NCBI GenBank assembly: GCA_902624105.1
Contig: CACNWH010000005.1
Coordinates: forward strand, 1-60,469
Length of the DNA stretch: 60,469 nt
DNA from: an uncultured Prochlorococcus sp.
GTDB lineage: Bacteria > Cyanobacteriota > Cyanobacteriia > PCC-6307 > Cyanobiaceae
Direction of reading: 5' to 3'
The position numbers were made by a program, and so were the translations under genes. Numbering within the stretch: the first letter of the stretch is position 1; every line of letters starts with the position of its first letter. Of this stretch, positions 12,342-45,513 are shown in pieces. A model generated the notes under the pieces. That model was not told where the DNA came from. It made no database searches and worked only from the letters and a program-made list of their open reading frames with translations.

Positions 12342-12351
12342 TACAAATCAA

Positions 12352-13410: not shown

Positions 13411-13527
13411 TTAAAAAATATTAGCAAAAACGATATTAATTCTTCTGAAATTTATGATGTAAACAAATCTTGCTTGAACTGATAGGATTAATCCAAATAA
13501 AAGAGTTAAAATTAATAAGCGTTTCAT
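13411..13527 (-). CDS. Short secreted peptide or gene remnant
   Basis: The frame has 38 codons with a clean signal peptide (MKRLLILTLLFGLILSVQA) and then only ~19 residues. It may be a truncated secreted protein. It lies downstream of, and on the same strand as, the 124-residue secreted protein. Confidence 0.35.
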   Translation of the reverse strand: MKRLLILTLLFGLILSVQARFVYIINFRRINIVFANIF

Positions 13528-13551
13528 TTCGCTATTCTCCCACTATTGTCG

Positions 13552-14138: not shown

Positions 14139-14183
14139 TGCCCTCGTCGGGACTTGAACCCGAGACCTCACCCTTACCAAGGG
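14139..14183 (-). repeat. Distal attachment site: tRNA-Thr 3' duplicate
   Basis: 45 bp identical to 45432-45476, the anticodon-loop-to-3'-end part of tRNA-Thr(GGU). It breaks off at the anticodon stem, so no tRNA is made. It marks the far end of the integrative element. Confidence 0.93.
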
Positions 14184-14642: not shown

Positions 14643-14689
14643 GGTGCTTTGGGAGCACTAGGTCGCAGGTTCGAATCCTGTCGCCCCGA
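14643..14689 (+). repeat. tRNA-Pro(UGG) 3' half, left end of nested element
   Basis: Anticodon stem and loop (GTGCTTTGGGAGCAC, anticodon TGG), T-arm (GGTTCGAATCC) and 3' acceptor to GCCCCGA are present, but there is no 5' half or D-arm. The first 37 bp (14643-14679) recur exactly at 17057-17093. This is an attachment-site remnant, not a working tRNA. Confidence 0.88.
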
Positions 14690-17056: not shown

Positions 17057-17093
17057 GGTGCTTTGGGAGCACTAGGTCGCAGGTTCGAATCCT
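17057..17093 (+). repeat. tRNA-Pro(UGG) fragment, right end of nested element
   Basis: 37 bp identical to 14643-14679. It is preceded by GGGGCGTG (17048-17055), which resembles a tRNA-Pro 5' acceptor, and followed by CAATGAC instead of the 3' acceptor. The D-arm is missing, so it is a decayed tRNA or att scar, not a functional tRNA. Confidence 0.85.
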
Positions 17094-20360: not shown

Positions 20361-20424
20361 TTTGGTAGAAGATTTAAAAATAACTTTTTTCCTGATTTAA
20401 CATTTAGTTGTTTATGATCTCAGT

Positions 20425-20616
20425 ATGACTTTAATTTCTTACAGAATGCATAGGATTTATCTAGCAGCGACAATGGGATATGGTCTTGGTTCTGATGATC
20501 CTGAGGAAGTTGCATACTACAAGAAATTAAAGAAAGAAATGGAAGATATGAAGAAAGATCCAGTAAAAAAAGGTATCCCTCTATCTTTTGAAATTAATGA
20601 AGGTAAGGATAAATGA
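20425..20616 (+). CDS. 63-residue conserved small protein, copy 2
   Basis: This is a paralogue of 10928-11119, sharing H-R-I-Y-L-A-A-T-M-G-Y-G-L-G-S and the K-K-G-I-P-L tail. It is coupled to the following 31-residue gene by an ATGA overlap, as in copy 1. It converges on the second SIMPL gene, so gene order is an inverted copy of 10.0-11.1 kb. Confidence 0.7.
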   Translation: MTLISYRMHRIYLAATMGYGLGSDDPEEVAYYKKLKKEMEDMKKDPVKKGIPLSFEINEGKDK

Positions 20617-20708
20617 CTTTGAACACTTTTTTGTTATTTGATGGGAGCCTAATGCTTATTGGATTACCTCTATTGATGATCCTCAAAGGCAAAAAGAAGA
20701 CTCCCTAA
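20613..20708 (+). CDS. 31-residue membrane microprotein, copy 2
   Basis: ATG to TAA encodes one hydrophobic helix and a basic end (K-G-K-K-K-T-P). It differs from copy 1 at three residues by my reading, although many codons differ, so purifying selection on the peptide is likely. It ends 5 bp before the convergent SIMPL stop. Confidence 0.7.
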   Translation: MTLNTFLLFDGSLMLIGLPLLMILKGKKKTP

Positions 20709-20713
20709 TTCAA

Positions 20714-21496
20714 TTATTTAACAGCGAAAGTTACTCCCATTACAGCAGTAATATCTTTCTTAATTGTTGAAGTATCATAAGATCCCCAACTGCTTACTCT
20801 AGTGGAATTTGGAACTGTGATCTGAAAAACACCAGTATTTACTTTCTTCAAACCTCCTACTTCAGATCCTGCCTGAAGAGCAATAGCTTCAGCTCTGATA
20901 CGTGCATCTTTTGCAGCCTTGGCGAGCATGTCTACTCTCTTATCAGCAAGCTTTGAATATGTAAATTCTGGAGAACTTGGTCTTACTAAAACACCTTCTC
21001 CAAGAAGTTGAGTTATCTTGCTATGGGTCTTTTGAATGCGATAAACGTCATTGCTTTGGATTTCAATACTCTGATAGGTAATCCATTCCGTTCTTATAAT
21101 TTCATTTGTCTTCGGATGCTTGGTTTCATATTCCTTGATGCTTGCTGGTCCAAGATAAACTTCTTGTTTAATGCCATCTTCAATTCCATTGGCTTTAAGG
21201 AAATTCATAGTCTTTTTCATTGACTCTTTGTGCTTGTTAAAAGAGTCAATTTGAGTTTTACCAGTAGCCCTGACCTGAACGGACCATTTGGCAATATCAC
21301 TTTCAAAACTTTCCGTACTTGCACCCGTAACAGTGATGGAATTTTCAACCATCCGAAAACCTCTTACGAGAACTGTTGATGCTCCGATAAAACCACCAAG
21401 TGATAATACAGCCATCGCAAAAACAAGAGGTGGAGTACGACGAATAACTCTCAGAGAATCTCCAGGTAGAGACCTGATATTTTTTAAAATTTTCAT
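20714..21496 (-). CDS. SIMPL-domain membrane-anchored protein, copy 2
   Basis: This 260-residue paralogue of 10049-10831 has the same layout: basic N-terminus, transmembrane helix at 25-45, periplasmic SIMPL domain. The open frame extends 17 codons further (to 21547), but the aligned start M-K-I-L-K-N-I-R-S-L-P-G-D-S and the conserved non-coding leader fix the start at 21496. It lies inside the integrative element, whereas copy 1 lies outside, so the element has captured or shared a host module. Confidence 0.87.
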   Translation of the reverse strand: MKILKNIRSLPGDSLRVIRRTPPLVFAMAVLSLGGFIGASTVLVRGFRMVENSITVTGASTESFESDIAKWSVQVRATGKTQIDSFNKHKESMKKTMNFLKANGIEDGIKQEVYLGPASIKEYETKHPKTNEIIRTEWITYQSIEIQSNDVYRIQKTHSKITQLLGEGVLVRPSSPEFTYSKLADKRVDMLAKAAKDARIRAEAIALQAGSEVGGLKKVNTGVFQITVPNSTRVSSWGSYDTSTIKKDITAVMGVTFAVK

Positions 21497-21665
21497 TTTA
21501 TTTTGGTACGTGGGTAGGAACTTTTTAACAGCTGAACCGAAAGACAAATATTAGAAAATCCCTGACTTATAATCTTTCAGCTCTTTTTGGCCATTAAGGG
21601 AAACATCTATTTTTGATGTGCCAATTTTGGAGTCGGTTACTAATATTGCCAAAACAAATTCTTCT
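21497..21665 (-). promoter_or_regulatory. Conserved leader of the SIMPL gene, copy 2
   Basis: This is the reverse-complement counterpart of 9888-10048 and shares TTTCGGTTCAGCTGTTAAA, TAACCGACTC and TTGGCAATAT. Conservation extends about 170 bp upstream of the start and then stops. Confidence 0.5.
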
Positions 21666-21722: not shown

Positions 21723-24059
21723 TTAATCTATATTATTTTTTATACTTTTAAAAAATTCTATAAGCTTTTTGAATCCTGAGCTATACATATTTTTACCCCT
21801 TTCATCTAGCTCCTTATTTTCGGGGACCGATAACCAATGATCCTTAAGTTCATTTAAATCCTCATTCCTTACTAATTCATCAACTGATGAATAGTTAGGT
21901 TTCATCTTTAATAATTCATTTGTTATTTTATAAACCGCACTCGTATATTTGCCAATACTATTTTCACTTAGTTCTGTTTCTTTTCTCATCCATTCAGAAA
22001 ATGGTGCATCATACATAAAAGTTTTTGCGAAACTCAATCTATTCCAAATTTTTATATCGATATTTGCATAAAAGTCACTCAAATTAATTGAACTAAAAAC
22101 TTCTTCATTAATAAATTTAAAAATTCTTTCAGTAGGAACTTTGCCTTGTGCAATTTCTTGAAATTCTGCAATTATTCTTTCATCACTCATTCCTAAAGCT
22201 GATAAAACAGTAACAATTTGCTTGAATGCATTTTCTTGAAGAGAACTTTTATCTTCTTCATCTAGTACAACAGGCAAAATTATATATCCAAAATTCTTAT
22301 TTTTTGATAATCTCATCGCTCTCCCTGCTGCTTGAACAATATCAACTTTGCTATGTTTAGGATCAGCAAAAAGAACAGCATCTACTTCTGGAATATCAAC
22401 TCCTTCGGTTAAACATCTTGCATTTGTAATTAAGCTTGGTTCTTCATATGTGAATCTATTTATTACTTCTGACCTTATGCCAGTGCTAAATTTCCCCGAG
22501 ATATGAAAAGAATGCAAATAACCATATTTTTCGCCTAATTTATTAACTTCTTCATTTAATTTGCAAAAATCTTTTGCCCTTTTGATATTCCTATGAAAAG
22601 AAATAATATGCTTTATATTTTTTTCTTTTATTATCTTTCTTAAGGTTATTAATGCTGCAAATGTTGAAGCATCTGCCTCGAAAGAAAATAATCTATTATC
22701 CGAAGATACTATTTCATTATTATCTATGAGTTCTTGTATCTGTTTTTTAGAAATTAGGGCTGAATAGATTCGATAATCAGAAAGTATAGGGGGATTTTGT
22801 TCTAGGGCGGATTTAAATGAAAATTGATCAACAACTTTCCCATAAATTTCTTCATCATCCATAGAAACAATATTCTCAGAATCGCCTTTAAAAACTCTTT
22901 CTGTCGCTGTCATAAATAATCTTTTTTTTACTGAAATATTTGAATCATAAAGAAGTTGAGCAAAAGGTTTATTTTTATTCCCAACTGTTTTATGTGCTTC
23001 ATCAAAAATACCAATATCAAAAATAATATTTGAATTTTCTACTGACTCAATTAATTTTTTACCACTTTGATAAGTAGTAATGACAATTTTAATTTTTTGG
23101 GAATTTTTTTGAAGAAAATCAGAAATTAATTCTTTATCAGTGTTTACTTCAATTCCTAAATCAAATTTATTTATTGCAGGATCATCTAAATTTTTTACAT
23201 CATCATCACTACAAACAGCTATCCAATCAATTTCTATACCTTCACACATAAATTCTCTGGCCCAAGTTTTTAAAGTTTGCTTTACGAGCTGAAGACTTGG
23301 AACAACTATTAGAGCATTATTCCCTTTCATGTTTCTAAAGAACCAATATCCAGTTAAACTTTTTCCTGAGCCACAGGGATGAATTAATTTACCTCTTGAT
23401 TTATTTTTAAAATAAGAATTACAGTTCTCAAGAGCTATTTTTTGATGTTCTCTAGGTTCGTATTTCTTAAGGTTTACTTTCTGATTATCTAAAATTGAAT
23501 GAAAATTTTTAAATTCTTCATTGTCTAATTGTGAAAAATCGGAATAAGTTATAAAGCCTAATTTTTCTTTATGAACAGTAGAAATTTTTTTACTTACTTC
23601 TAAAGCAGATGAACTTATTATCCTGTGTCTGATTTTTTGGTAAGTTACATCTCTTTCAGTAATACTAAAAAAAGTACTTACTTCGTCATAAGAAATATTC
23701 TTATGGACATCATCATGATACTTGCATTGAATTGCCCAAATATTACCTTCATTTGATTCTGCTATAAAATCAACGCCAATTTCAGGCCTTTGTAAATCTA
23801 ATGAATCAAAAACTTTATGAGGGACATTAGAGTGATGCCATAAATTAGTTAATTTGCTAGAAAAAATTGGATTATTTATGAAATATAGGGAAGTTAATAA
23901 TTCAAATACATCACCCTTCTTTTTATTGTTTACAGGATCAGATCCAAGTTTACTAATCTGAGCCGAAAATTCATCCCAATTATGAGATGAAAGCACCAAT
24001 TCTTTTGTTTCATGCTTTTTAAAAATATCAATATCTTGTACTGATCTTGCAGAAAGCAT
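21723..24059 (-). CDS. Restriction-nuclease-DEAH helicase fusion
   Basis: This is a 778-residue protein. The N-terminal Mrr-like nuclease domain has E53, D97 (I-G-V-D-F) and Q111-C-K113. A SF2 helicase follows with Walker A H-P-C-G-S-G-K-S (~227-234), Walker B D-E-A-H (353-356), and motifs V/VI T-E-G-V-D-I-P-E-V-D-A-V and Q-A-A-G-R-A-M-R-L. A helical C-terminal domain follows. This resembles the nuclease-motor half of single-chain type I-like (type ISP) enzymes but has no methyltransferase. It could be a stand-alone defence gene or use the neighbouring PglX mark. It lies downstream of brxL, separated by the GIY-YIG remnant. Confidence 0.8.
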   Translation of the reverse strand: MLSARSVQDIDIFKKHETKELVLSSHNWDEFSAQISKLGSDPVNNKKKGDVFELLTSLYFINNPIFSSKLTNLWHHSNVPHKVFDSLDLQRPEIGVDFIAESNEGNIWAIQCKYHDDVHKNISYDEVSTFFSITERDVTYQKIRHRIISSSALEVSKKISTVHKEKLGFITYSDFSQLDNEEFKNFHSILDNQKVNLKKYEPREHQKIALENCNSYFKNKSRGKLIHPCGSGKSLTGYWFFRNMKGNNALIVVPSLQLVKQTLKTWAREFMCEGIEIDWIAVCSDDDVKNLDDPAINKFDLGIEVNTDKELISDFLQKNSQKIKIVITTYQSGKKLIESVENSNIIFDIGIFDEAHKTVGNKNKPFAQLLYDSNISVKKRLFMTATERVFKGDSENIVSMDDEEIYGKVVDQFSFKSALEQNPPILSDYRIYSALISKKQIQELIDNNEIVSSDNRLFSFEADASTFAALITLRKIIKEKNIKHIISFHRNIKRAKDFCKLNEEVNKLGEKYGYLHSFHISGKFSTGIRSEVINRFTYEEPSLITNARCLTEGVDIPEVDAVLFADPKHSKVDIVQAAGRAMRLSKNKNFGYIILPVVLDEEDKSSLQENAFKQIVTVLSALGMSDERIIAEFQEIAQGKVPTERIFKFINEEVFSSINLSDFYANIDIKIWNRLSFAKTFMYDAPFSEWMRKETELSENSIGKYTSAVYKITNELLKMKPNYSSVDELVRNEDLNELKDHWLSVPENKELDERGKNMYSSGFKKLIEFFKSIKNNID

Positions 24060-24142
24060 TTCTTCAAAACTTTTTAATTAATATACATAGAAACAAATAT
24101 AAAAACAAAATATAAGCTACTAGAAATTTTGAATTTATTTAT

Positions 24143-24340
24143 TCAAAAATGATAAGGCCTATGGTCATTAACCTTAAATCTTATTTGTGATTCACCAATC
24201 GATGTATATTTATTTGCTAATTCGGGATCAAATTTCAATAAAGCATTTTTTGTAATTTGTCTCTTTTTTTTTCTTTTCCAAGAACATATATCCTTTATTA
24301 CATGGTTTTCACTAATTAAAACTTTTATTTTTTTGAATTT
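24143..24340 (-). pseudogene. Second copy of the GIY-YIG gene 3' end
   Basis: The minus-strand frame encodes ~65 residues ending in a TGA at 24143-24145. It aligns with the C-terminus of the GIY-YIG protein (37629-38669): I-K-D-I-C-S-W-K-R-K-K-K, Q-I-T-K-N-A, Q-I-R-F-x-V-N-D-x-R-P-Y-x-F. The DNA has diverged (for example L-K-F-D for L-K-Y-D), so it is not a fresh duplication. With the intact gene it brackets the BREX operon as a direct repeat. Confidence 0.85.
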
Positions 24341-26462: not shown

Positions 26463-29006
26463 TTAGAAGTCCTCGAAGTCATTGCCAAATGGTTGAAGTA
26501 ATTTTATTTCCCTTGTTTGATAGGGAACTGGTGTTTGTATACCTTCTTTCAGTTGTTCAAATTTTAATTCCAATATCTCGTTATTGTAACCTCCTGCAGT
26601 ATTTGTTAAATTGATTTCAATTTCTTTTTCTCTTTCTCGAGGTTCTATTGCCTCTGACTCTAAAGATACAATTTTTGGAACAGAGAGATGAGCATTATCT
26701 TTTTTTGCTATTACACTTATTTTAAGCTTCAGAGGCAAGCGACTTTCTTTCTTACAGGGTTCATCCTGAAATAGAAAAAACTTTATGCGAGGAGTAGTTA
26801 TTTTAACCGGGACTCTTAACAATTCTGCTTTTACTTGTTGTATTTCTACTTTAACAATCTTTTTTAATCTAATTACTGGAATGACAATTTCTTGAAGGGA
26901 AGTCCCTCCATGAACAAAGCGATTCCCAGAACCTGATTTTGGAAATCGATTAAGTCCGAGAGGGAAAGCTGCATCCCATTCTCCCTCTAAGCCCAGTTGA
27001 TTTGCAGAGAAAATCTTTACTCCTGACTCGGCCTTTATATTATTTCCCATAGCAAATCTTCTCTTCTTAATACTCATATCATCGGCTGCAGGGAAGTTAG
27101 AACGATCGTTTTCGTAGACAGGTTCTTGTTGAAAAAGGAATCCATGATCTGCTGTTATGATCACTTGGCTACCTTTTAAGCTACTTATCTTTTTTAGTAT
27201 CTTCTGAAGATCTTCGAAAGAATCCTCTACTGCTTCGCAAGTATCAGCCTCACTCTCAAGCTTATCGCTAATACGATCAATGCGATTGTGATAAACAACT
27301 ATAAGATCATTATCTAAAATAATCTGTGCAGCTTCTTTGGTTGTGGAGAGGTTGAGAAATTCTTCAGATTGAATCGCTTTTGATCGACCCTTGTGGTATT
27401 CCTTAAAAAATTTATCACGATTTTCAGTACCTGAAACGCTCTTACCATCTACTATCGCGGGTGCATTTGGATCTGAAATATTAATATTAATTTTATTCCC
27501 GGGCAGAAGAGAGGCCATCCCTAGTTGTGTGTATGAAGGTAATACACCAAGTAATGCATTTATCTTTGCGTCCCAACTCTTACTTGATTGGCTGTTTAAT
27601 CGGTCAACAAAATCATGGGCCGCTTCGTAGCGAAGAGCATCAGATATTACAACAAATAATCGCTTAAGTTTGGAAGAACTTAAAGGGGTATGAATGTAGG
27701 TTTTATGAAAAGATTTTTGTGAATGTAAATTAACTGAACTCCAGTGGCTTAGATCTTTGACATGATCACTCCACTGATTTGTAAGTGGACGCAATGCGTT
27801 ATTTAAATATTGATTCTCAACCCATTCTTTCAAGGGCTTCATTAATCCTGGCTGGCCATAGCTTCGAGTGTGAAAGACACAACATCGATATGTTCTATCT
27901 ATTCGCCACCAATTATTACAGTACTGTTGAAGACCATTTTCAAAACTTTGTACTTTTAAATCATTTTCAATTATGAGATTACGGAGTTCAACAGCCAATC
28001 TTATAGCATCATATGCGTGACTATGCTTCTTATACCAAAAGGAATTTTTTCTTAGATTTATTCTTTCAAGGAGTTCAGAACTATCGTTTAAATTACTAAA
28101 TTGTTGAATTAATTTTCTAATACAGAATAGTTCTATTAGTTCATAGCAATCGTCTTCTAGAGGATTAAATTCATCTTTTTGATCTAAAAGATTATGTTCA
28201 ATCTTTAGTAATTCCGAAAGGAATTTACTCCATTTTATAAATGAGTTATCATTTTGCCTGCTATCCTTCCAATCACTTAAAAAAACTTGAGCATGACTTT
28301 CAAGGTGTCCATTACTACCTAAGCAACTAACAGTATTGAATAATTGCACTGCAAAATCACTTAAACATGGATCATTATTTTGATATCCAAACTTATTACT
28401 TACGGCCTCCCAGAAAAATTCTTTGAGTCCAAAAGCACCAAATAACTCATCAATTTGATCAGATGAATTCGAATCAGTTGGATCATAGATACTTAAGGCA
28501 TGTAGCAATAAATGATCAATCGATGGTGACTGATTTGTAATTACAGCTAGCATTTTTAATCGGACAGCTTTTTCATCATCATTTGGGTGAAAAAGTTCTT
28601 TAAGTTTTTTACAGCGACTTGGTGCTCTAAAGAAGGATTTATGTTTCTGCGCTAGTTCTTTGAACTCAAGAGGAAGTCCAGCCATTTGAATATCTAAGGA
28701 TGCACGATCAGCTTTAAATTCATAGCCAGCAAGTAAAACATCAAGTAACCAATTATTTTCATCCGTTGGTTTGGAGGATCTAAAGTAGAGAAGATATTTT
28801 TGGTCTGAGGATGCTCGGCTGATTTTAACTTTTACAGAAAATTCGTTCCTATCAATAGAATATTTTGTGATATTTGATTCTTTGTAACTATCAAATTCTT
28901 CAGTCCATTCACTTTCCGAGTCATACCAAAAAACTATCCTATGATTATTAAAAGCGTTATTGATACTTTCGTGAATTCGTTTAATTGAGTTAGGCGTTTG
29001 AGTCAT
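26463..29006 (-). CDS. pglZ: BREX alkaline-phosphatase-superfamily protein PglZ
   Basis: This 847-residue protein is the hallmark BREX component. The alkaline-phosphatase-superfamily core is visible: metal-site strand LFVVISDALRYEAA (~residue 450) and I-I-T-A-D-H-G-F-L-F (~615). The N-terminal ~400 residues are helical and the C-terminal ~200 are beta-rich, as in type 1 PglZ. It lies between the GP88-like gene (17 bp gap) and brxL (6 bp gap) in one operon. It probably acts with PglX in the methylation and exclusion complex. Confidence 0.93.
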   Translation of the reverse strand: MTQTPNSIKRIHESINNAFNNHRIVFWYDSESEWTEEFDSYKESNITKYSIDRNEFSVKVKISRASSDQKYLLYFRSSKPTDENNWLLDVLLAGYEFKADRASLDIQMAGLPLEFKELAQKHKSFFRAPSRCKKLKELFHPNDDEKAVRLKMLAVITNQSPSIDHLLLHALSIYDPTDSNSSDQIDELFGAFGLKEFFWEAVSNKFGYQNNDPCLSDFAVQLFNTVSCLGSNGHLESHAQVFLSDWKDSRQNDNSFIKWSKFLSELLKIEHNLLDQKDEFNPLEDDCYELIELFCIRKLIQQFSNLNDSSELLERINLRKNSFWYKKHSHAYDAIRLAVELRNLIIENDLKVQSFENGLQQYCNNWWRIDRTYRCCVFHTRSYGQPGLMKPLKEWVENQYLNNALRPLTNQWSDHVKDLSHWSSVNLHSQKSFHKTYIHTPLSSSKLKRLFVVISDALRYEAAHDFVDRLNSQSSKSWDAKINALLGVLPSYTQLGMASLLPGNKININISDPNAPAIVDGKSVSGTENRDKFFKEYHKGRSKAIQSEEFLNLSTTKEAAQIILDNDLIVVYHNRIDRISDKLESEADTCEAVEDSFEDLQKILKKISSLKGSQVIITADHGFLFQQEPVYENDRSNFPAADDMSIKKRRFAMGNNIKAESGVKIFSANQLGLEGEWDAAFPLGLNRFPKSGSGNRFVHGGTSLQEIVIPVIRLKKIVKVEIQQVKAELLRVPVKITTPRIKFFLFQDEPCKKESRLPLKLKISVIAKKDNAHLSVPKIVSLESEAIEPREREKEIEINLTNTAGGYNNEILELKFEQLKEGIQTPVPYQTREIKLLQPFGNDFEDF

Positions 29007-29023
29007 AGTTATAGATTTGTTCT

Positions 29024-29800
29024 TTAAGCTTTAAGGCCATTTTTTTGTGCCAAAGAAAAGGATTTGATGCCCTGCAGTCTTAGAAGTCGCGGAATATTAT
29101 TAGCCACAATACCTATTTTATTTGTTGGGAGCAGGGCGGCCATGAGATCAGATTTCTCCTGATCTTCGTAACCTGCAGCGGTGAGCGCTTGCAGGTTTGG
29201 GAATATATCATCATGACGATCTAGGCTTGTATCAATAAGCTCATCTTCCTTGCCACCCATTGAAAAAATTACGATAAAGTTTTTCGGTATTTTGCCTTCT
29301 TTGTTTGCTTTTTTAAAATCAGATACCTGCTTAGAATAAGTGTAAAATAAAATGTTTGGATTGTTATCAGCAATCTCAAGCCAATCTAAAAGATATCGGT
29401 AAGAGAAAAAGTCGCCAGCGTCATGAATTCTGACAGCTTTTCCTCCTGAAGTGACCCACCAGTCAAAGTCCTGTCTAGTTTCCCAGTCAAAAGAATGTGC
29501 CTCGCCTGTTGGTCTAAATTTTTTCGCGTTGAGTTCATTTTGGAGTTTTTGCTTCCAGGCAAATGGGTCACTTATATATTCTTCCAAGTTTTTTGTATGC
29601 GCGTTGACGACAGGTCTAAACGTATATCGCCCAGTCCTCGCGTAACACAATGCTGCACAAATCCCAGCATTGGGACAGGTTTTTATACGACCGAACTTGT
29701 CACTTTTGGCCACCAATGCGGGAATTGTCCATACAAAAATACCCAAACCTGCAAGCTCGGAGTTTCCTTTTCGGAGTAGTTCCCGTTTTTGTGTGCTCAT
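29024..29800 (-). CDS. Phage GP88-like protein inserted in the BREX operon
   Basis: This 258-residue protein resembles the phage gene-product-88 family. It has an N-terminal cysteine cluster C42-P-N-A-G-I-C48-A-A-L-C52-Y with an aromatic-rich start, and the mid-protein signature V-R-I-H-D-A-G-D-F-F-S, then W-L-E-I-A and I-L-F-Y-T-Y-S-K. The family's activity is unknown to me; the three cysteines could hold a metal or iron-sulphur cluster. It is not a standard BREX gene. The spacing (10 bp from pglX, 17 bp to pglZ) shows it is an integral operon member. Confidence 0.8.
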   Translation of the reverse strand: MSTQKRELLRKGNSELAGLGIFVWTIPALVAKSDKFGRIKTCPNAGICAALCYARTGRYTFRPVVNAHTKNLEEYISDPFAWKQKLQNELNAKKFRPTGEAHSFDWETRQDFDWWVTSGGKAVRIHDAGDFFSYRYLLDWLEIADNNPNILFYTYSKQVSDFKKANKEGKIPKNFIVIFSMGGKEDELIDTSLDRHDDIFPNLQALTAAGYEDQEKSDLMAALLPTNKIGIVANNIPRLLRLQGIKSFSLAQKNGLKA

Positions 29801-29810
29801 GTAATCATAG

Positions 29811-32800
29811 TCAAGCCTGAAATTTTGCCAGCACTTTTTGGAGTTTGGAATAATTGACCTTTACACCATCATTAAGATTTAGTTTGATGCGTTGTTGGGC
29901 AAGTGGTAACAATGCTTCTTTTTCCCAATCTTGACATTCTTTGATTACCTTATTGATCCTATCTGCCTCTTTACGAGCTGCTATTTGCTCACGCTTTGAT
30001 AAAGAGTCTTTGACTTGATTAAGATCTAATGAAGTTAATCTTGCTTCAAGTTTCTGAAGATAAGGTCGGAAGTAATCATTGAGCACTTGCAGTAAGGTCT
30101 CTGGCGTATAACGATGTAGGTAGATTAGACAGGCAAAACCAGCTTTGGGACTTTGCACCATCCAATAGATAGGGCGTTTTTTATAAGTTTGGATATGATC
30201 TTTATAAAAATCATTTAGGAAGTATTTACGAATATCCTTACCTATTGAAGTCTCTATAAAGCGTAAATTCTCTTCAAAATTATCATCTCCGAATGTGATT
30301 CTTAAAAACTTTTTAAATCTTGCGGTTATATCGTCTTTGAACCAATCTAAATTAAAAATAGGGATTATATTATCATCATCTGGTTTAAATAATGGATTAG
30401 GAAATCTCTTTAAAAAATCTTCTAAATTCTCTCCTTGATTGGCAATGATTAAACCAGGTTCCTCTAATGAATAGCGACCAAACATACAACCAACGGAATA
30501 AGAAATAAATTCTTTTAATGTATCAGATTTTAATTTATCTTCTTGAAATTCTTGAATAATTTTTTCTCGATACCTATTTCTTGGATTTGAGATCAAAGAA
30601 ATTTCGTTAATTGAGATATTTGGTGATAGCTCATCTTGAAGTCCATATGCTTCAATAAATACTTTATTATTAGATTCTTCTAACTCAAGCATTTCATCAG
30701 TATTTAATTGCCAAATTTTTCTAAGACTATCATAGGTTTCAGTTAATTTTTGAGAATCTTTTTTTATTTTTAAAAGTGGCAAATCACAAAAATCCCAAGA
30801 TGTTTCATAAGAATCCCAATCAGACTTTGAAATTTTAATAAGTCTTTCAATAGTGCTATTTTCAAATTTAGATATATCTCTTTTAAAAGGTAAATTTAAT
30901 ATATTACCTAATTTAAAATCTAGATTTGGAGCAAGAATTTTTAAAATTGCTGTTGAAACTTTTGAATTAAGTTGTCCCAAAATAGGGAGAAGTTGTTCAG
31001 GATTTTTAGAAAACCCCATTGGACCTTTAGCGTCAAATTTAAATCCACAAGATACACTTCGAACTGCAAAACCACCCGAGATACCAGACCATGTGAACCC
31101 TTTTTTAAAGGCAAATTCACCATTATAGTTATGAGATCTAATTCTTCCAGTATCAGCGTCTTTAAAATTTTTTAACAATTCTCCATTTTTATGCCAATTT
31201 ACAATGTATTCAAAATTTCCGTACCAGCGTCTAAACGATCCACCCTTTAAGTATGGGAACCAGGTGTGTGTTCCATTTGATGTATCTTCAATATTTTTGT
31301 AGTTAAATCCAATTTTTTCAAAATTGACTTCATGCCAATATCTCATAAAAAGATCATTATTACCAGTTATTAATCCCTCTCTGGTATCAATAAATTTAGT
31401 TAAGTTTGGATATGTTTGAAAATTATTATAGAGTTTATCGCTCACCCAATATGCAATAGGATAACCTGGTATTTTTAGAAAATCATTAGAAGATATTTTA
31501 TAAAACCACTCACAATTTTTATTTTTAATTGCCTCTTTAGTCATGTCAGATTTTTCATTTTCTGACATTCCATCCACAAGACGTAAGAATTCACCTTTAT
31601 GTTCAATATTATGAGAATTTTGGAAAACAAATGCAGTTGTTGAAACTATCTCGCCCCCTATAGAGTCAAACCCTCTTGTACCAATATGTGCCATTGTTAA
31701 GAACTTAAAATTTGACAATAGTTTTGAACGAAGTTTTTCATATCTAGCAATAAACATCCATACTTGCATATTAATCATGGAAAAATAACCAGATTTAAGA
31801 GTTAAATTTGCTGAACGCTCTAAAAACATTGCAAACAAATTTAATTTGCTAAGAGGGTAAACTTTCTTTGCAAATTCAGATAAATTGCTGTTAAATCCAT
31901 TATTTCCCATATAAGGAGGGTTAGTAATTACGATATGATATTTTTTTTGAAGAAAATCTGACTGATTAATTAACTTTAAAACCAAATTATGAGTTGTATT
32001 TAAGAAAAGATTGCTTGATATATTTTTTTTAATAAGTATTTCAAGAATCTCATGTGGATTTTTTAAAACTGGTTCTATAAGAGAACCAAAATTTTCACAT
32101 TCTTCAAATTGTCTAAGAGCAGTTTGGAAAGTACTTGTAAATAAATCTATTCCTACTTCATCAACGTACTGCTTAATTTGATTATTGTTAAATTTAATAT
32201 TTTCTAATGCACAGATTCTTGGTTCTACAGGCTTACTAAAAAAGTTTCTTTGTTTTTCTCGTGCTTTTATTATCAATGAAAAGTAAGATAAATCTGCTGC
32301 TCTTTTATCAATTTCTATGCCATATAAATTATTCTTAAGAATTAGTTCAGGAATAATATCCTCTTGGTAACCTTCTTCTTCATATATTGAAAATAAGAGA
32401 TCAAAGCAATATATGAGAATATGACCTGAACCACAAGCAGGATCACAAATCTGAATTTCTTCTGGTGTATTTATCTTTAAAAAATCAGTTTCTGGTATTT
32501 CTGGTGGAACGAAATGTTCCATTTTTTTTATTAAATTTGATTTAGGATTATTTAACATCCAAAGACGTCCAAGAGAATTTTCTACTAAATATTTGACAAT
32601 CCATTTCGGTGTGAATAATTGAGTAAAAGCAGGAATATCTTCTGATACAACCTTTTTATTTTTTTTATTTAGAGCGTTTCTAATTTCTTCTTTTTTTTCA
32701 GAAATATAAAACTGATATAACCATCCAATTATTTCTACGTCTTCGCAGTCTTCATCTAATATCTCTTTGCGAAAGTTTCCAGCAATGGAGTTCTCCGTCA

Positions 32801-33344
32801 ATAAATCATCTGGAAGTAAGAGTTCAGTTGCATCGTCAAGGGCTTCGAATAAATCTGGTAATAGGTGGTGATAGGAGCGGCAAGCCGCAAGAACTAATTC
32901 TCTATAAACCTCCGCTTGAGGATCGCCTCCTTGCGAGGAGGTTGGAATCTGATTATCTAGAATCTGGTTAAGCCGCTGCTCGTCGATGAACTTCTTTAAC
33001 TCGGCGGGTAAACTTCCTGAACGCATCAGCTTTAACAGTTCAGGTTGGTTTTCGCCTTGTTCAGCAGGCATCAAAACTTTGCATGCAAAAGGATGCCAGC
33101 CTTTTGCATCGAGATAACGTAAAGCGCATAGGCGATTGAACCACGTGTATGCGACCTTCTCAATTAATTGATCTCTATTTTTATCTTGTTGTTCGCGTAG
33201 ATTTTCTATTTGCTTTGCATAGGTAGTTAGCGTATCTGGGGTTTTGGTATTGATCAATAAATCTAGTTTTCGGCTCACTCCTTCCATAAGCTGCCTTCGC
33301 ATGGCTGGAGCAAAGATTTTAAGAACACTAGTATTTACAGCCAT
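29811..33344 (-). CDS. pglX: BREX adenine methyltransferase PglX
   Basis: This is an 1177-residue N6-adenine methyltransferase that marks host DNA at the BREX motif. Visible features are the N-terminal conserved region, SAM motif I C-D-P-A-C-G-S-G-H (300-308), the catalytic motif N-P-P-Y (475-478) and a long C-terminal specificity region. Length matches type 1 PglX. Base composition is mosaic: 31 of 60 bases are G or C at 32881-32940 (N-terminal part) but 11 of 60 at 31921-31980 (catalytic to specificity part). This suggests recombination or amelioration. It starts 46 bp after the brxC stop. Confidence 0.95.
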   Translation of the reverse strand: MAVNTSVLKIFAPAMRRQLMEGVSRKLDLLINTKTPDTLTTYAKQIENLREQQDKNRDQLIEKVAYTWFNRLCALRYLDAKGWHPFACKVLMPAEQGENQPELLKLMRSGSLPAELKKFIDEQRLNQILDNQIPTSSQGGDPQAEVYRELVLAACRSYHHLLPDLFEALDDATELLLPDDLLTENSIAGNFRKEILDEDCEDVEIIGWLYQFYISEKKEEIRNALNKKNKKVVSEDIPAFTQLFTPKWIVKYLVENSLGRLWMLNNPKSNLIKKMEHFVPPEIPETDFLKINTPEEIQICDPACGSGHILIYCFDLLFSIYEEEGYQEDIIPELILKNNLYGIEIDKRAADLSYFSLIIKAREKQRNFFSKPVEPRICALENIKFNNNQIKQYVDEVGIDLFTSTFQTALRQFEECENFGSLIEPVLKNPHEILEILIKKNISSNLFLNTTHNLVLKLINQSDFLQKKYHIVITNPPYMGNNGFNSNLSEFAKKVYPLSKLNLFAMFLERSANLTLKSGYFSMINMQVWMFIARYEKLRSKLLSNFKFLTMAHIGTRGFDSIGGEIVSTTAFVFQNSHNIEHKGEFLRLVDGMSENEKSDMTKEAIKNKNCEWFYKISSNDFLKIPGYPIAYWVSDKLYNNFQTYPNLTKFIDTREGLITGNNDLFMRYWHEVNFEKIGFNYKNIEDTSNGTHTWFPYLKGGSFRRWYGNFEYIVNWHKNGELLKNFKDADTGRIRSHNYNGEFAFKKGFTWSGISGGFAVRSVSCGFKFDAKGPMGFSKNPEQLLPILGQLNSKVSTAILKILAPNLDFKLGNILNLPFKRDISKFENSTIERLIKISKSDWDSYETSWDFCDLPLLKIKKDSQKLTETYDSLRKIWQLNTDEMLELEESNNKVFIEAYGLQDELSPNISINEISLISNPRNRYREKIIQEFQEDKLKSDTLKEFISYSVGCMFGRYSLEEPGLIIANQGENLEDFLKRFPNPLFKPDDDNIIPIFNLDWFKDDITARFKKFLRITFGDDNFEENLRFIETSIGKDIRKYFLNDFYKDHIQTYKKRPIYWMVQSPKAGFACLIYLHRYTPETLLQVLNDYFRPYLQKLEARLTSLDLNQVKDSLSKREQIAARKEADRINKVIKECQDWEKEALLPLAQQRIKLNLNDGVKVNYSKLQKVLAKFQA

Positions 33345-36300: not shown

Positions 36301-36861
36301 ATTTATTCTTGAGTAGGTTTGCTTAAATCCGTCGAATTCACCTTGCGCGTCCATATCGTATTCGAACTTAGCTAAAAAGCCTGAACGTCCGTAATATCCT
36401 TGTAATTCATTTAATACCTTCATGAATACTTCAAGTACTGCTGCTTCTTCCGCACCTCCTCTAACGTCGTACTTTTGAGCAATATTAAATAATAAACTTC
36501 GCGAAGGGATTGAAGTCGCTTTTTTGAGATCAGCACGTAAGATTTCATCCTTTACTTTTGGTAAGAAAAATTCCGCTGGCCGCTTACCATCAACTTTTTT
36601 GTAACTATCGAGTATAAGCGAGAGCATTTTTAGTAAGTGAGACTTTCCAGAGCCAAAGAAACCGGAAATCCAAATACCATTTGCAGTAGGATTATTCAGA
36701 TACGCTTCACAAAAAGTATTTAACCCCTTACTTACTTCACTAGTCACAACATATTCGCCGAGTTCTATTTCTAGATGTCTCTCATCATCAGCTTTAATTA
36801 CTCCATCAATTGGACGATCAATATCTTTTTCAAAAAGCTCTTGTATAGTTAAAAAAGTCAT
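33391..36861 (-). CDS. brxC: BREX P-loop ATPase BrxC
   Basis: This 1156-residue protein is the large BREX ATPase (PglY relative). The N-terminal ATPase has Walker A GFFGSGKS (67-74) after the conserved start (L-F-E-K-D-I-D-R-P-I-D-G-V-I-K-A) and a sensor/Walker B region D-E-A-G-Q-F-I. The central part is mixed alpha/beta, and the C-terminal ~250 residues are strongly coiled-coil. Length is typical of type 1 BrxC. The ATG overlaps the brxB stop by four bases, so the two are coupled. Confidence 0.95.
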   Translation of the reverse strand: MTFLTIQELFEKDIDRPIDGVIKADDERHLEIELGEYVVTSEVSKGLNTFCEAYLNNPTANGIWISGFFGSGKSHLLKMLSLILDSYKKVDGKRPAEFFLPKVKDEILRADLKKATSIPSRSLLFNIAQKYDVRGGAEEAAVLEVFMKVLNELQGYYGRSGFLAKFEYDMDAQGEFDGFKQTYSRINKTNWVDDRDAVLTANKQKFAKAYAEHFGGEKVDAIRVINDAKDSYRLSIEVFTERVSKYLEEQEKDFRLNFFVDEAGQFIGQKISRLLNLQTIVESLATATNGRASVFITSQADLESLLGTVKFKQADSISKIQGRFTTKLSLASADVEEVIQHRLLAKNPDEPPQLIDIYEREIENFKTLFRFSSDSLQLKGWQDCQSFCGLYPFHPYQLALFQESMQTLASHYIFEGPDMAVGERPMLSVFQEVAKTIKKLPLGNLASFDQLYDGLSEVIRADKKRTMASAQKQVSETELRILKVLFLLKWVTQFKSTSRNISILLINKPNFDIQGHEQTVKDALINLESQSYLQRNGEVYEFLTDKEQDVEQEIKRQDIGDSEVIKLMHEVIFKDVLRCNGKASYEANNYDYKIAHKIDDLLMSREQSIAVNIITPENQNYESEETLLGRNMGGSELMVILPDHDRIHDQIRSFLKTDQYIKKHSGSEDELLESILRSRSSQNSTRRKDIQLIAEEQLKKAKLVINGNKLPAGQSEPKSKLNKAYQELIRTAYPKLSMIKGIYNEVRISKIVNEQDDLLTGSSIKLSEAETEVFVEIDRQQKGADLITADGLVRYFDNRPYGWNPWATLTFIARLYKLGKIELREKELLNDDNIVDALSNKSRLTRIEIRKIETYDFSKINALKRFHQDLFPNESSGTDARSTCKSFCNAMAKEHEQLSEILDQASTYEFLTVVKSWAEEAKVLSQKNNSYLLNNLNDFKDKWLEAEKSILTPVKKFLKGHQKTIFDEVKAFSNSFIDEFSDSSSEYIQPINDLLESSTPYLENQIVKAKSAMKELEKILEQDLKEAKESAEKKIDEQESQLKSDESFLSLDTDQQKEVLKATELARSELQSATKPSTLLVLINRYKEKGKPLQLAMIDKLLNPKDSSEGDVVPSSMIKTTCKLSRIKDLVDLDEWINALRVAAKKELDKGNSISL

Positions 36862-37472
36862 GAGATTAAAGTCCTGAAGGAATCAAGATTTATAGCTCTG
36901 TAATGAGCTGTCTCAATTTCGCAAGTCGATTTTTTCCCAAATAATCTTAGGAAAGATCCTTCATCAGATTCTTGATTATATTCACCAGGAAAGAAAATAA
37001 CGAATGGATGTCTTACCATAGCTGGTTGCAATGCTTCAAGAATAGAATGAGTTCTTAAAAAAGGATATATTCGTCCTAATCCTGTAATTAAACTTACCTG
37101 GTTTTCTTCTCCAATTTCTTGAATTAGCTTAGGCACAAGTGCATCATTTGGATCGGCAATGTTTCGGAGGTCATCAAGAAGATCACTTTTGCTCCACGTA
37201 ATTTCATCTTTAATTACGTCTTCCAGATAACCCTTTTGTTCTAATATTTGAATTACTAATTCAAACAAGTCAATATGTTTAACTCGTACTCCTTTCTTCT
37301 CTAAAACTTTTTTAATTCCTCTAACTATTCGAAGAATATCATCTTCATCACAAGGGTTATAGGTCTGAATAAATAAAGGTAATTCTTTTGCAATTCCACT
37401 CATTTCAAGAAAATCCTGTTGTGAAAGTATATTGTGTAAACGTTTATCTAGATCTTTAGTAGTTTTATTCAT
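36858..37472 (-). CDS. brxB: BREX protein BrxB (DUF1788)
   Basis: This 204-residue protein is the first gene of the BREX operon proper. It shows the DUF1788 pattern: an early L-P-L-F-I-Q-T-Y-N-P segment, E-D-D-I-L-R, the V-S-L-I-T-G-L-G-R-I-Y-P-F strand-turn, and P-F-V-I-F-F-P-G-E-Y near the end. BrxB is needed for BREX function but its activity is unknown. Type 1 operons normally place brxA before it. Here the upstream gene is a GIY-YIG protein 156 bp away and no brxA is seen. Confidence 0.92.
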   Translation of the reverse strand: MNKTTKDLDKRLHNILSQQDFLEMSGIAKELPLFIQTYNPCDEDDILRIVRGIKKVLEKKGVRVKHIDLFELVIQILEQKGYLEDVIKDEITWSKSDLLDDLRNIADPNDALVPKLIQEIGEENQVSLITGLGRIYPFLRTHSILEALQPAMVRHPFVIFFPGEYNQESDEGSFLRLFGKKSTCEIETAHYRAINLDSFRTLIS

Positions 37473-37628
37473 TATCTTAAACTTTATTTATTGTTAATCA
37501 AAATAATAATAATTTTAAATTAAAAAAATAGTATAAATATGTGCTTATAGAAATCAAACTAAAAAGCAATTTTATAATTCATAAAAATAACTATCAAATT
37601 TTTAACTTAAGCGTAAAAAAATATTTTA

Positions 37629-38669
37629 TTAAAAATAATAAGGCCTATAGTCGTTCACTATAAATCTAATTTGAGGTTCTCCTAAAGATATATATTTACT
37701 AGCTAAAGACGAATCATATTTTAATACAGCATTTTTTGTGATTTGTTTCTTTTTTTTTCTTTTCCAAGAACATATATCTTTTATTCCTTGTCTTTCTCCA
37801 ACTAAAACTTTTAATTTATTTTCAAGTAACTTTTTCTTGAATTCACATGGTTGAAGTTCAACATGAGCATCAAGCCATCTGGAATGCAATTTTATTAAAT
37901 CTTTATTTCTATTTATTGAATCAAATGAATAGTTATTTGTAAATTTTTGTCCTTCAATTAGTTCTTCTAATTTTTTAAATTCTTCACTTTTTTTATTTTT
38001 TAAATCTTTTTTAATATTAAAGCTTGAGTTGATAATATCTACTGATAATTTTTTAAATATATCTGGATGATCTTTTTCAAAATTGACCTTATCAAATTTT
38101 TCTTGTGGTTTTATTTTTTCATAAAAACAAATTCCCTCTACATCTTTGAAAAAATTTCTATCAAAAGATCGAAGTTTTAACTTTGCTAAATCTTTCACAT
38201 TTTTTATTTTTATGATTTCTTTTTTTGTTTCTAGTAACTCATTATGGATATCTTTTGCTTCAGCTGATGGTTTTAATTCTTCACCATTATCTTCAATTAA
38301 TGCATATTGGTTTATTAATAAATTATCCTTTATTTGGCCTTCTAAATCTTCATTGATTTTTTTAGTTAATTCTACATAAGGATGTATTCCATCTTCTCCA
38401 TAATTGAACCATTCTCCATGGATTCTATACTTTGCCAATCTTTGATGAACAAGAGATTCTAAAGTTGAAACTTGAGCATAGGTTTTAACTTCTGCTTCAA
38501 CAATTATTTCTCTTGGATTACCGGTTTGATGTTCTTTCCTTCTTTCAAAAGATGATCTTCCACAATCATTACCTTTTACAAGTCCAATCTTTACATAAGG
38601 GCCACAGGGATAACCAAATAAATCCCTTTCTGTCATGAAATAAATAAAACCAATATTTTTTTTGTCCAA
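37629..38669 (-). CDS. GIY-YIG/T5orf172-type nuclease-like protein
   Basis: This 346-residue protein has an N-terminal GIY-YIG superfamily domain of the T5orf172/Mug113 kind: I-G-F-I-Y-F-M-T, Y-V-K-I-G-L-V-K-G, R-K-E-H-Q-T-G-N-P, and the late E-W-F-N-Y. The C-terminal ~230 residues are charged and helical and end in a conserved basic module (K-D-I-C-S-W-K-R-K-K-K-K). That module is present a second time at 24143-24340, so the 3' end of this gene was duplicated or used as an insertion point for the BREX block. It may be a nuclease partner of BREX or an old homing-type gene. Confidence 0.8.
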   Translation of the reverse strand: MDKKNIGFIYFMTERDLFGYPCGPYVKIGLVKGNDCGRSSFERRKEHQTGNPREIIVEAEVKTYAQVSTLESLVHQRLAKYRIHGEWFNYGEDGIHPYVELTKKINEDLEGQIKDNLLINQYALIEDNGEELKPSAEAKDIHNELLETKKEIIKIKNVKDLAKLKLRSFDRNFFKDVEGICFYEKIKPQEKFDKVNFEKDHPDIFKKLSVDIINSSFNIKKDLKNKKSEEFKKLEELIEGQKFTNNYSFDSINRNKDLIKLHSRWLDAHVELQPCEFKKKLLENKLKVLVGERQGIKDICSWKRKKKKQITKNAVLKYDSSLASKYISLGEPQIRFIVNDYRPYYF

Positions 38670-38781
38670 CTTCCTTTTTTTCGGATATTAGTATTAATTT
38701 AATTTATATTTTAATTTGAAACTTAATAAGGTTAATAATTTATTAAAAAAATAAAACACCAATCCGCATGTATAAAAACCT

Positions 38782-43953: not shown

Positions 43954-45303
43954 CTAAACCTCAATCCTATTTTTTAAATGTCTTTCAAATGCTTTTTCTA
44001 AACAAAGTTCTGTTGTGTAAGAACCATAAAAAGAATTATGCGTTTCTACAGAATGACCCATGGCAGCAGCAGCATCTTTTACTGATATTGGGATAGTGGA
44101 ACCCTTATGACATTGATACGCATATCTATGTCTCAGACTATAAGGAGTTATATCAGGATTAGCTTTAATGATTTCTATCCATACTTTATTCCTCTCGATT
44201 AACTGCCTTAGTGCTTGTCCCACATCACCATATCTATTTTTATCTTTTACCATTTTTATTTGATTTATGACTGGTATAGGCAATGTAATTTTTTCTGATT
44301 CAAAAAGCTTAATAAGTTTTTTGCCAAGATTCTTTTTCTCAATAAGATCCATAGGAAAAACTCTTCTATCCTCTTTTTTAGCTTTTGTATTGATATTATT
44401 TTTGATGTTGCCTACATATAATTTTCCATCAACAACTCTAAGAACCGCAAGTTCAGATAGTCTCAGGCCAAAAATTGAAATCAAACCTACGGCCAGAAAT
44501 AATGAAGAATCTCTTGATTCAAGATCATCTAATAATCTGAGTAAATCATTTTCTTCAATATATGGAGTTAATTTATCTTGTTTGGTTCTATTAGATTTTC
44601 CAATTAGTTCTTTTCTATAGTCTTCGCTTGGTGGTTGCCACCTTTTTTCGTTCTGTGAATGTCTTTCAATTCCATATCTTAAAATTTCACACCAAGCATT
44701 TATGTATCTTTTCTTTTGGTTAGGTTCTATTTCAGTAAGGTATTTATCTGATAATTTCTTTATTAGTTCAACTCCTGTATTAGGTGCGGGAGTATTGTTC
44801 ATTACTTCTAAGAACCTACTAATCCTTCTAGCCCAATCTTTTTCAGTTTTACTGGTAAGACCTTGTTTTGTTTGCATGAATTGATCAACCTTGGATACTA
44901 CATTTAAATATGCTTTTAAATCCTTTTCATAGTTTGCATCCTTTTTATTTATGGGCCTTATCAATAAGAAATCATTCCAACTTTTATTTGGTTGTTTCCT
45001 TGATTCTCCAATGAATTGAGCCTTCCATCTTCTAGTGGCCTCTTTAAGAGTTAGATTTTTTTCAACTATTAATGGTTTTATAAATTCGATAGCTTTAAGA
45101 ATTTCTATCCCTGAGGTTTTCTTCCATTCTATTGGTAAGGTTTGAGAAGTTCTTTTATTGGCAGAACCTAATCCTTCGTTATAAACATACAAAAGTTTGG
45201 TTCTGCCACTATTTTCGCCATTCACCCTAAATCCACGACCAAAATTAGTGCAGATATTTTTTCTTAACTCTTTTTCCCAAGAAGTGCAGTTAACACTTGT
45301 CAT
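43954..45303 (-). CDS. int: Tyrosine recombinase (integrase)
   Basis: This 449-residue phage-type integrase has a C-terminal catalytic domain with the first Arg in G-L-R-L-S-E-L (~residue 280), H-x-x-R box L-R-H-R-Y-A (~391), G-H-S near 420 and the nucleophile tyrosine in F-Y-G-S-Y (~427). An N-terminal SAM-like arm-binding region lies at ~145-230. It sits beside the tRNA-Thr target and its ATG is 11 bp from the paired 9-bp sites, so it may repress itself. It most likely catalyses movement of the 31-kb element, and possibly of the nested one. Confidence 0.93.
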   Translation of the reverse strand: MTSVNCTSWEKELRKNICTNFGRGFRVNGENSGRTKLLYVYNEGLGSANKRTSQTLPIEWKKTSGIEILKAIEFIKPLIVEKNLTLKEATRRWKAQFIGESRKQPNKSWNDFLLIRPINKKDANYEKDLKAYLNVVSKVDQFMQTKQGLTSKTEKDWARRISRFLEVMNNTPAPNTGVELIKKLSDKYLTEIEPNQKKRYINAWCEILRYGIERHSQNEKRWQPPSEDYRKELIGKSNRTKQDKLTPYIEENDLLRLLDDLESRDSSLFLAVGLISIFGLRLSELAVLRVVDGKLYVGNIKNNINTKAKKEDRRVFPMDLIEKKNLGKKLIKLFESEKITLPIPVINQIKMVKDKNRYGDVGQALRQLIERNKVWIEIIKANPDITPYSLRHRYAYQCHKGSTIPISVKDAAAAMGHSVETHNSFYGSYTTELCLEKAFERHLKNRIEV

Positions 45304-45336: not shown

Positions 45337-45431
45337 GAATAGCTATATTTTCGATATATCTAGACATATCCACTTATTTTATAATTCTACCTAATTATTT
45401 ATGATTCACTGTGCTGCAGTCAATCTGGGTA

Positions 45432-45476
45432 TGCCCTCGTCGGGACTTGAACCCGAGACCTCACCCTTACCAAGGG
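45432..45476 (-). repeat. Proximal attachment site within tRNA-Thr
   Basis: 45 bp identical to 14139-14183. Identity ends at the anticodon stem, which places the crossover between the anticodon loop and the 3' end of the tRNA. Confidence 0.93.
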
Positions 45477-45503: not shown

Positions 45504-45513
45504 ATTATTAAAG

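What the first reader, a model, noticed from the sequence alone, without database searches (positions are those of the whole stretch)
29024..29800. Phage GP88-like gene built into a BREX operon
A protein with the GP88 signature and a C-x5-C-x3-C cluster sits between pglX and pglZ with 10- and 17-bp spacers. It is not one of the standard BREX genes. A phage-family protein in this place could modify specificity, sense phage, or protect against BREX inhibitors. This looks like a new BREX variant.
Basis: partly seen in the sequence, partly recalled or inferred. Interest (0 to 1): 0.85.

Follow-up and report, generated by a model that had tools for sequence, protein, structure and literature searches.

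The report
Phage-type gene in BREX accessory slot
A gene of a family found mainly in phages sits between two core genes of a bacterial anti-phage (BREX) operon, but a near-identical BREX lacks it and a near-identical copy of it survives where BREX is gone, so it is a swappable passenger or accessory gene rather than a part of a new BREX type.

Summary
An intact 258-aa GP88 gene (PF17338, E=1.4e-35; invariant C-x5-C-x3-C) lies at 29024-29800 (-), 10 bp after pglX and 17 bp before pglZ, in a Type I BREX operon. The reading "new BREX variant" does not hold. (1) A sister BREX in the same genus (G496; pglZ-brxL 94% identical in DNA) has nothing between pglX and pglZ. (2) A complete genome of the genus (G560) carries a 96%-identical GP88 with no PglZ, no BrxC and no BREX nearby; behind it stands what looks like the first ~18 bases of pglZ, so BREX was probably lost and GP88 kept. 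dN/dS is 0.14. (3) None of the 80 best GP88 relatives in GTDB genomes lies near BREX genes; the family belongs to phages and actinobacterial mobile elements. (4) In other cyanobacterial BREX operons the same gap is usually occupied, by Septu, Leo/dynamin-like, GmrSD-like or nuclease genes, and PARIS there is published for Salmonella. Best reading: a phage-derived accessory gene, probably a self-sufficient Fe-S (perhaps radical-SAM-like) enzyme, riding in a known BREX accessory slot on a tRNA-integrated island of a picocyanobacterium. Function is inferred, not shown.

The parts
29024..29800 (-). GP88-family gene, 258 aa, the accessory gene in the pglX-pglZ gap
   Evidence: Pfam PF17338 E=1.4e-35; GC 41.4% / GC3 37.1% against 31.7-36.7% / 19-29% for the BREX genes
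29645..29677 (-). C42-x5-C48-x3-C52 cluster (CPNAGICAALC), candidate metal or Fe-S site
   Evidence: invariant in 29 aligned sequences
29402..29425 (-). HDAGDFFS motif, directly after a predicted strand (residues 121-125)
   Evidence: H126, D127, G129, D130, F131 and S133 invariant; model secondary structure
28991..29811 (-). 821-bp block shared with the BREX-free genome G560 (95.6% DNA identity): GP88 plus short flanks, including the first bases of pglZ
29811..33344 (-). pglX, BREX-1 adenine methyltransferase
   Evidence: NF033452, 1326 bits
26463..29006 (-). pglZ, BREX-1 type A
   Evidence: TIGR02687, 607 bits
24348..26456 (-). brxL with a C-terminal phospholipase D-like (HKD-type) domain
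   Evidence: PF13337, PF20442, PF16565
33391..36861 (-). brxC
   Evidence: NF033441, 928 bits
36858..37472 (-). brxB
   Evidence: PF08747
38675..38977 (-). region upstream of the T5orf172-brxB side of the operon; its homologue stands directly upstream of GP88 in G560 (85.5%)
14139..14183 (+). left copy of the exact 45-bp direct repeat of tRNA-Thr (putative attachment site)
45432..45476 (+). right copy of the 45-bp repeat, inside tRNA-Thr(ggt) 45431-45504
43954..45303 (-). integrase-like gene beside tRNA-Thr
   Evidence: phrog_216 integrase E=1e-6

Best explanation
The GP88 gene is a phage-derived accessory gene occupying the variable pglX-pglZ slot of an ordinary Type I BREX operon, on a tRNA-Thr-integrated, probably mobile island of a picocyanobacterium (most likely Prochlorococcus). 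It is separable from BREX, is kept by selection, and probably acts by itself. The product is most likely an enzyme that binds metal or an Fe-S cluster through three invariant cysteines, on a barrel that resembles radical-SAM enzymes; acting on a nucleotide, nucleic acid or phage component it would add a second layer of protection, or serve the island, beside BREX. Shown: position, intactness, empty slot in a sister BREX, solo copy without BREX, slot turnover in related operons, phage kinship, purifying selection. Inferred: co-transcription, cluster binding, catalysis, defence role.
For: Sister BREX G496 (brxL 97%, pglZ 90% aa) with pglX and pglZ 5 bp apart and no GP88. Complete genome G560 with 96% GP88, no PglZ match, no BrxC (G496 as positive control) and no BREX gene in 36 kb; behind its GP88 stand ~18 bases like the pglZ start (16 of 18 match), so it was probably once in such an operon. 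dN 0.017 / dS 0.116; 10 non-synonymous codons against 19.4 expected at random, and 64% of random versions gain a stop. Slot occupied in 9 of 10 cyanobacterial BREX loci with a visible junction, by different genes, many of them known defence families: LeoA/LeoBC, PtuA/PtuB, HEC-05, HEC-06/GmrSD-like. Published precedent: PARIS ariAB between pglX and pglZ in Salmonella, not needed for methylation (PMC9009780, PMC11341690). Distinct GC. GP88 tree: window sister to a viral contig, in a set of 36 viral rows, 1 bacterial row and the window. Structure: pLDDT 89; the best-ranked PDB chains in the second-look alignment are radical-SAM enzymes, Z 5.0-6.2.
Against: No activity data. The Z-scores (about 6) are in a range the tool says can be mere common arrangement. 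The Cys spacing is not the radical-SAM CX3CX2C and no radical-SAM Pfam model is hit. Selection could have acted while GP88 was still with BREX. One solo copy and one near-identical empty slot are small numbers. G496 and the window genome are incomplete MAGs, although the relevant junctions are intact within their contigs.
Confidence: 0.62

Rival explanations
1. GP88 is a functional component of a new BREX variant: it tunes PglX specificity, senses phage or guards against BREX inhibitors.
For: In-operon position with 10- and 17-bp spacers and same strand; all family motifs intact; purifying selection. PARIS, which sits in the same slot in Salmonella, is triggered in other hosts by the BREX inhibitor Ocr (discussed in PMC11341690).
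Against: A sister BREX whose pglZ-brxL block is 94% identical has an empty slot (G496); a solo 96% copy survives without BREX (G560); no GP88-BREX linkage in the 80 best GTDB relatives or in other cyanobacterial BREX.
Confidence: 0.13
2. GP88 is a neutral or selfish passenger: a phage or mobile-element gene that landed in a tolerant intergenic gap and does nothing for defence, or serves only the island.
For: Family is mainly viral or on actinobacterial mobile elements; sporadic in the genus, 2 of 249 genomes; no defence model matches it.
Against: dN/dS 0.14 and intact reading frame in both contexts; retained where BREX is gone; the slot otherwise often holds defence genes.
Confidence: 0.17
3. 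GP88 is a phage-derived counter-defence or DNA-modifying gene that protects the mobile island or its companion phages from host or rival restriction.
For: Phage family, some copies beside terminase-like or ParB-like genes; solo copy next to a Type IIG restriction-methylase.
Against: No known anti-restriction family matches; nothing shown about the substrate.
Confidence: 0.08

Closest known systems
PARIS (ariAB) embedded between pglX and pglZ in Salmonella BREX (StySA / D23580)
   Same: Same position in a Type I BREX operon; absent from the closely related E. coli HS BREX; not needed for methylation (PMC9009780, PMC11341690).
   Different: Two genes, OLD-type ATPase plus TOPRIM nuclease; GP88 is one gene of an unrelated three-Cys family with no tested function.
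BrxU / GmrSD type IV enzymes and other nucleases embedded in BREX loci
   Same: Accessory effectors riding in BREX core loci, surveyed in at least 4363 taxa (PMC12839542); HEC-05/HEC-06 GmrSD-like genes fill this very gap in L127 and L129.
   Different: GP88 matches no nuclease model; the text search of that survey found no mention of gp88 or radical SAM.
GP88 family of phages and actinobacterial mobile elements (PF17338)
   Same: Full-length family member, 55% identical to viral contig L209.
   Different: Lies in a BREX operon and in a cyanobacterial island, not in a phage genome or conjugative element.
DUF5131 (phage Gp37/Gp68) three-Cys proteins and radical-SAM enzymes (viperin, EpeE, SuiB, TYW1)
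   Same: Collinear motifs with DUF5131 (C..CYA, D-F, Y/L-TK, P-N; pairwise E=0.018, control 0.5); top structural matches are radical-SAM enzymes.
   Different: Probability of the profile match is only 2.5%; Cys spacing is CX5CX3C; no radical-SAM or DUF5131 Pfam hit.
Prokaryotic viperins (known antiviral radical-SAM enzymes; from my own knowledge)
   Same: Best structural match is a viperin-like enzyme (Z 6.2, rmsd 4.3 over 160 residues).
   Different: 9% identity, different Cys motif; antiviral nucleotide chemistry untested.

Membership tests
GP88 (PF17338) | Pfam model over its curated cut-off | tested here: met
   123.6 bits, cut-off 24.4
GP88 (PF17338) | invariant residues of the family kept | tested here: met
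   C42, C48, C52, H126, D127, G129, D130, S180, G182, G183 and others
Type I BREX (host operon) | brxB, brxC, pglX, pglZ type A and brxL adjacent in order | tested here: met
Type I BREX (host operon) | brxA present | tested here: inconclusive
   PF08849 gave no match in the genome, but the search rang in no control genome and the MAG is 67% complete
Type I BREX (host operon) | methylates a 6-bp non-palindromic site and restricts phage | not testable with these tools
   needs long-read methylation calls and phage assays
New BREX variant with GP88 as a component | GP88 conserved in related BREX operons | tested here: not met
   absent from the sister operon in G496 (pglZ-brxL 94% identical) and from the L125-L136 operons
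New BREX variant with GP88 as a component | GP88 recurs with BREX elsewhere | tested here: not met
   80 GTDB relatives without BREX genes within 10 kb; solo copy in G560
Accessory module in the pglX-pglZ slot of BREX | lies between pglX and pglZ on the operon strand without disrupting them | tested here: met
Accessory module in the pglX-pglZ slot of BREX | separable from BREX; slot empty or otherwise filled in relatives | tested here: met
Accessory module in the pglX-pglZ slot of BREX | has anti-phage activity | not testable with these tools
Radical SAM superfamily | CX3CX2C motif | tested here: not met
   spacing is CX5CX3C
Radical SAM superfamily | match to a radical-SAM sequence model (PF04055) | tested here: not met
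   only GP88 hit at E<=0.001
Radical SAM superfamily | partial or full (beta/alpha) barrel of the family | tested here: inconclusive
   best-ranked PDB chains are radical-SAM enzymes, but Z only 5.0-6.2 and Foldseek E > 0.001
Radical SAM superfamily | [4Fe-4S] cluster and SAM cleavage | not testable with these tools
   needs biochemistry
DUF5131 (Gp37/Gp68) | Pfam PF07505 match | tested here: not met
   no hit; profile comparison weak, E=0.018
tRNA-integrated island (tycheposon-like) | tRNA-derived direct repeats with an integrase beside the tRNA | tested here: met
   45-bp exact repeat, tRNA-Thr, phrog_216 integrase

The most novel reading that the evidence does not exclude
GP88 is a stand-alone antiviral enzyme of an undescribed three-cysteine, radical-SAM-like family, taken from phages by a picocyanobacterial island and kept both inside BREX and after BREX was lost: a new class of defence gene with a possible viperin-like mode of action.
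Probability: 0.15. Interest if true: 0.75.

Novelty: new member of a known kind. Interest (0 to 1): 0.4.

Why it matters
It adds a phage-type gene to the list of modules that ride in the pglX-pglZ gap of BREX, and in cyanobacteria shows that gap to be a fast-changing slot that often holds defence genes. The natural pair, BREX without GP88 and GP88 without BREX in one genus, makes the function of a widespread unknown phage family directly testable: any anti-phage effect can be sought with the solo gene, free of BREX.

Tried and rejected
(a) GP88 as a BREX signature: searched class, genus, GTDB genomes, plasmids, phages and viral contigs; no second linkage. (b) A literature link: no paper in the held library has both BREX and GP88, and none names PF17338. 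(c) PDB sequence match for GP88: none of note. Foldseek against PDB: nothing at E<=0.001. (d) Radical-SAM membership by profile: MoaA E=0.079, DapA control 0.5, DUF5131 0.018; the DUF5131 alignment is collinear but not significant by probability, so used only as a lead. (e) Functional partner by neighbourhood in relatives: recurrent neighbours look like conjugation genes, NlpC/P60-like proteins, terminases and ParB-like proteins, that is, mobile-element backbones, no single partner (names from reading the sequences, not from model hits). (f) Chimeric contig: not likely, since the operon is contiguous, flanked by core gene der and tRNAs, and both GP88 and the sister BREX occur in other genomes beside the same tRNA-Thr sequence.

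Full report
What is there. The ORF at 29024-29800 (-) codes for 258 aa and matches Pfam GP88 PF17338 at E=1.4e-35. It lies 10 bp behind pglX and 17 bp ahead of pglZ, in a Type I BREX operon with brxB, brxC, pglX, pglZ type A and brxL. The cysteine cluster C42-x5-C48-x3-C52 is real and invariant in 29 aligned sequences, as are H126, D127, G129, D130, S180, G182 and G183. No PADLOC or NCBIfam model covers the protein.

Host and island. The window is a whole contig (C5) of a 1.1-Mb, 67%-complete MAG. Complete genomes of the genus are 1.6-1.7 Mb and the genome carries photosystem II chlorophyll proteins, a family that rang only in Synechococcus elongatus among the controls. I infer a picocyanobacterium, most likely Prochlorococcus; the tools name no organism. 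An exact 45-bp repeat of tRNA-Thr occurs at 14139-14183 and 45432-45476, with an integrase-like gene beside the tRNA (43954-45303). The BREX operon is thus cargo of a 31.3-kb tRNA-integrated island, of the sort described for picocyanobacteria as tycheposons (name from my own knowledge; papers using the term were found but not read).

Test 1, is GP88 needed by this BREX? In the genus, 4 of 249 genomes, the window's included, have a PglZ. One, G496, has a BREX whose pglZ-brxL block is 93.9% identical in DNA to the window, on a contig that also shares the left island edge and a match to the tRNA-Thr repeat. There pglX ends at 10082 and pglZ starts at 10076, so the gap is 5 bp and nothing is between them. 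More distant G618 is also empty there (pglX and pglZ about 14 bp apart).

Test 2, does GP88 need BREX? One other genome of the 249, G560 (complete, single contig), has a GP88 that is 96% identical. G560 has no PglZ match, no BrxC (G496 and the window genome ring in the same search) and no BREX gene in the 36 kb around GP88. GP88 stands there about 420 bp from the same tRNA-Thr, alone, convergent to a Type IIG restriction-methylase gene. The shared block is 821 bp and includes short flanks. Behind the G560 gene stands ATGACTCGAACGCCTAGC, 16 of 18 bases equal to the start of the window's pglZ; in front of it stands a copy of the region that lies upstream of the operon side of the window, 38675-38977. 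The simplest reading, inferred, is that G560 once had pglX-GP88-pglZ and lost the BREX genes but kept GP88. The two copies differ by 18 synonymous and 10 non-synonymous codons, dN/dS 0.14. Random placement of the same substitutions gives 19.4 non-synonymous codons on average, never fewer than 10 in 1500 trials, and introduces a stop in 64% of trials.

Test 3, is GP88 linked to BREX elsewhere? GP88 by protein search: 0 of the other 389 genomes of the class, where 16 genomes, the window's included, have PglZ type A over the cut-off. The best 80 relatives in GTDB genomes are all actinobacterial, and none has PglX, PglZ, BrxC or BrxL like the window's within 10 kb. Plasmid hits are all actinobacterial. 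In a tree of 105 rows the window is sister to viral contig L209 (55% identity, support 100/99) within a set of 36 viral rows, one bacterial row and the window (95/84). GP88 also differs from its neighbours in GC (41.4%, GC3 37.1%, against 31.7-36.7% and 19-29%). A phage-like origin is supported. Limit: the GTDB scan keeps only the best 80 of 139 and needs one of two conserved peptides.

What the gap normally holds. In ten cyanobacterial BREX loci with a visible pglX-pglZ junction, nine hold one to three extra genes and one is empty. The occupants differ from locus to locus: LeoA plus LeoBC dynamin-like genes (L125), a PtuA-like gene (L126) and PtuA/PtuB of Septu (L128; also directly before pglZ in L130), GmrSD-like HEC-05 (L127) and HEC-06 (L129), DUF1016, DUF4058, Uma2, an IS66 transposase. 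In plasmid BREX loci the gap was empty in two (L137, L141), held only a split-off piece annotated as pglX in one (L139), and held a PDC-S02 nuclease-like gene in one (L138). In Salmonella the two-gene ATPase/DUF4435 module, PARIS, sits in the same gap, has been proposed to be acquired later than BREX, and is not needed for methylation (PMC9009780; PMC11341690). A 2026 survey describes accessory effectors within or next to BREX loci in at least 4363 taxa (PMC12839542) and its text does not mention GP88. GP88 therefore fills a known accessory slot.

How it may work. AlphaFold2 with 29 sequences gives pLDDT 89 and pTM 0.88. Against viral models it finds other GP88 proteins and one named Gp37/Gp68-like. 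Against PDB, Foldseek has nothing at E<=0.001, but the second look ranks radical-SAM enzymes first: viperin-like chains, EpeE, SuiB and TYW1 at Z 4.9-6.2, ahead of unrelated barrels at 4.5 and below. Profile comparison with DUF5131 three-Cys proteins is collinear over the Cys motif, the strand-end Asp-Phe motif, the Y/L-TK motif and the P-N motif, with pairwise E=0.018, against 0.079 for MoaA and 0.5 for a DapA control. These are leads, not proof: the Cys spacing is not CX3CX2C and no radical-SAM model is hit. I commit to an Fe-S or metal enzyme that acts alone, on nucleotides, nucleic acid or a phage component, as an auxiliary layer beside BREX; the substrate is open.

Verdict. GP88 is an exchangeable, phage-derived accessory gene in a known BREX slot: a new member of a known kind. 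The useful part is the natural experiment in one genus (BREX without GP88, GP88 without BREX), which makes the function of a widespread unknown phage family testable.

Noticed in passing
14139-45476: 31.3-kb island bounded by an exact 45-bp tRNA-Thr repeat, with an integrase-like gene beside the tRNA and a primase/helicase-like gene (38782-39867): a tycheposon-like element carrying BREX, a helicase-nuclease, Mrr and a Schlafen AlbA gene.
   Followed up: partly
24136-24334 and 37622-37820: 199-bp direct repeats (80%) flank the BREX operon; both read as the C-terminal end of a T5orf172 protein. In G560 the homology to the helicase side ends inside this repeat, so it may be a recombination point for gain or loss of BREX.
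   Followed up: partly
29811-33344 against G496 10082-13558 (L300): PglX is a mosaic: about 80-85% identical at both ends (residues 1-200 and 1001-1178) but 23-55% in the middle, as if the target-recognition part had been swapped between sister BREX systems.
   Followed up: partly
14643-14679 and 17057-17093: A second exact 37-bp tRNA-like repeat marks a nested 2.4-kb unit holding a 694-aa helicase-like gene; related sequence occurs in G560.
   Followed up: no
9987-11132 and 20412-21558: Inverted near-duplicate (77-80%); the right arm holds a SIMPL/DUF541 gene (20714-21547) and the left arm an ORF of similar size (10049-10831).
   Followed up: no
12105-12300: 18-bp minisatellite (at least 8 copies) within ORF 11565-12341.
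   Followed up: no
21723-24059: Helicase with an N-terminal Mrr-like nuclease domain, 95% identical in the BREX-free G560 but missing from the G496 contig: another separable module beside BREX.
   Followed up: partly
36858-38669: No brxA was found upstream of brxB; the place holds a T5orf172 (GIY-YIG-like) gene. The brxA search had no positive control.
   Followed up: partly
L015-L094: GP88 relatives in actinobacteria often sit in what look like conjugative elements (VirB4-like ATPase, NlpC/P60-like protein), some genomes with several copies.
   Followed up: partly
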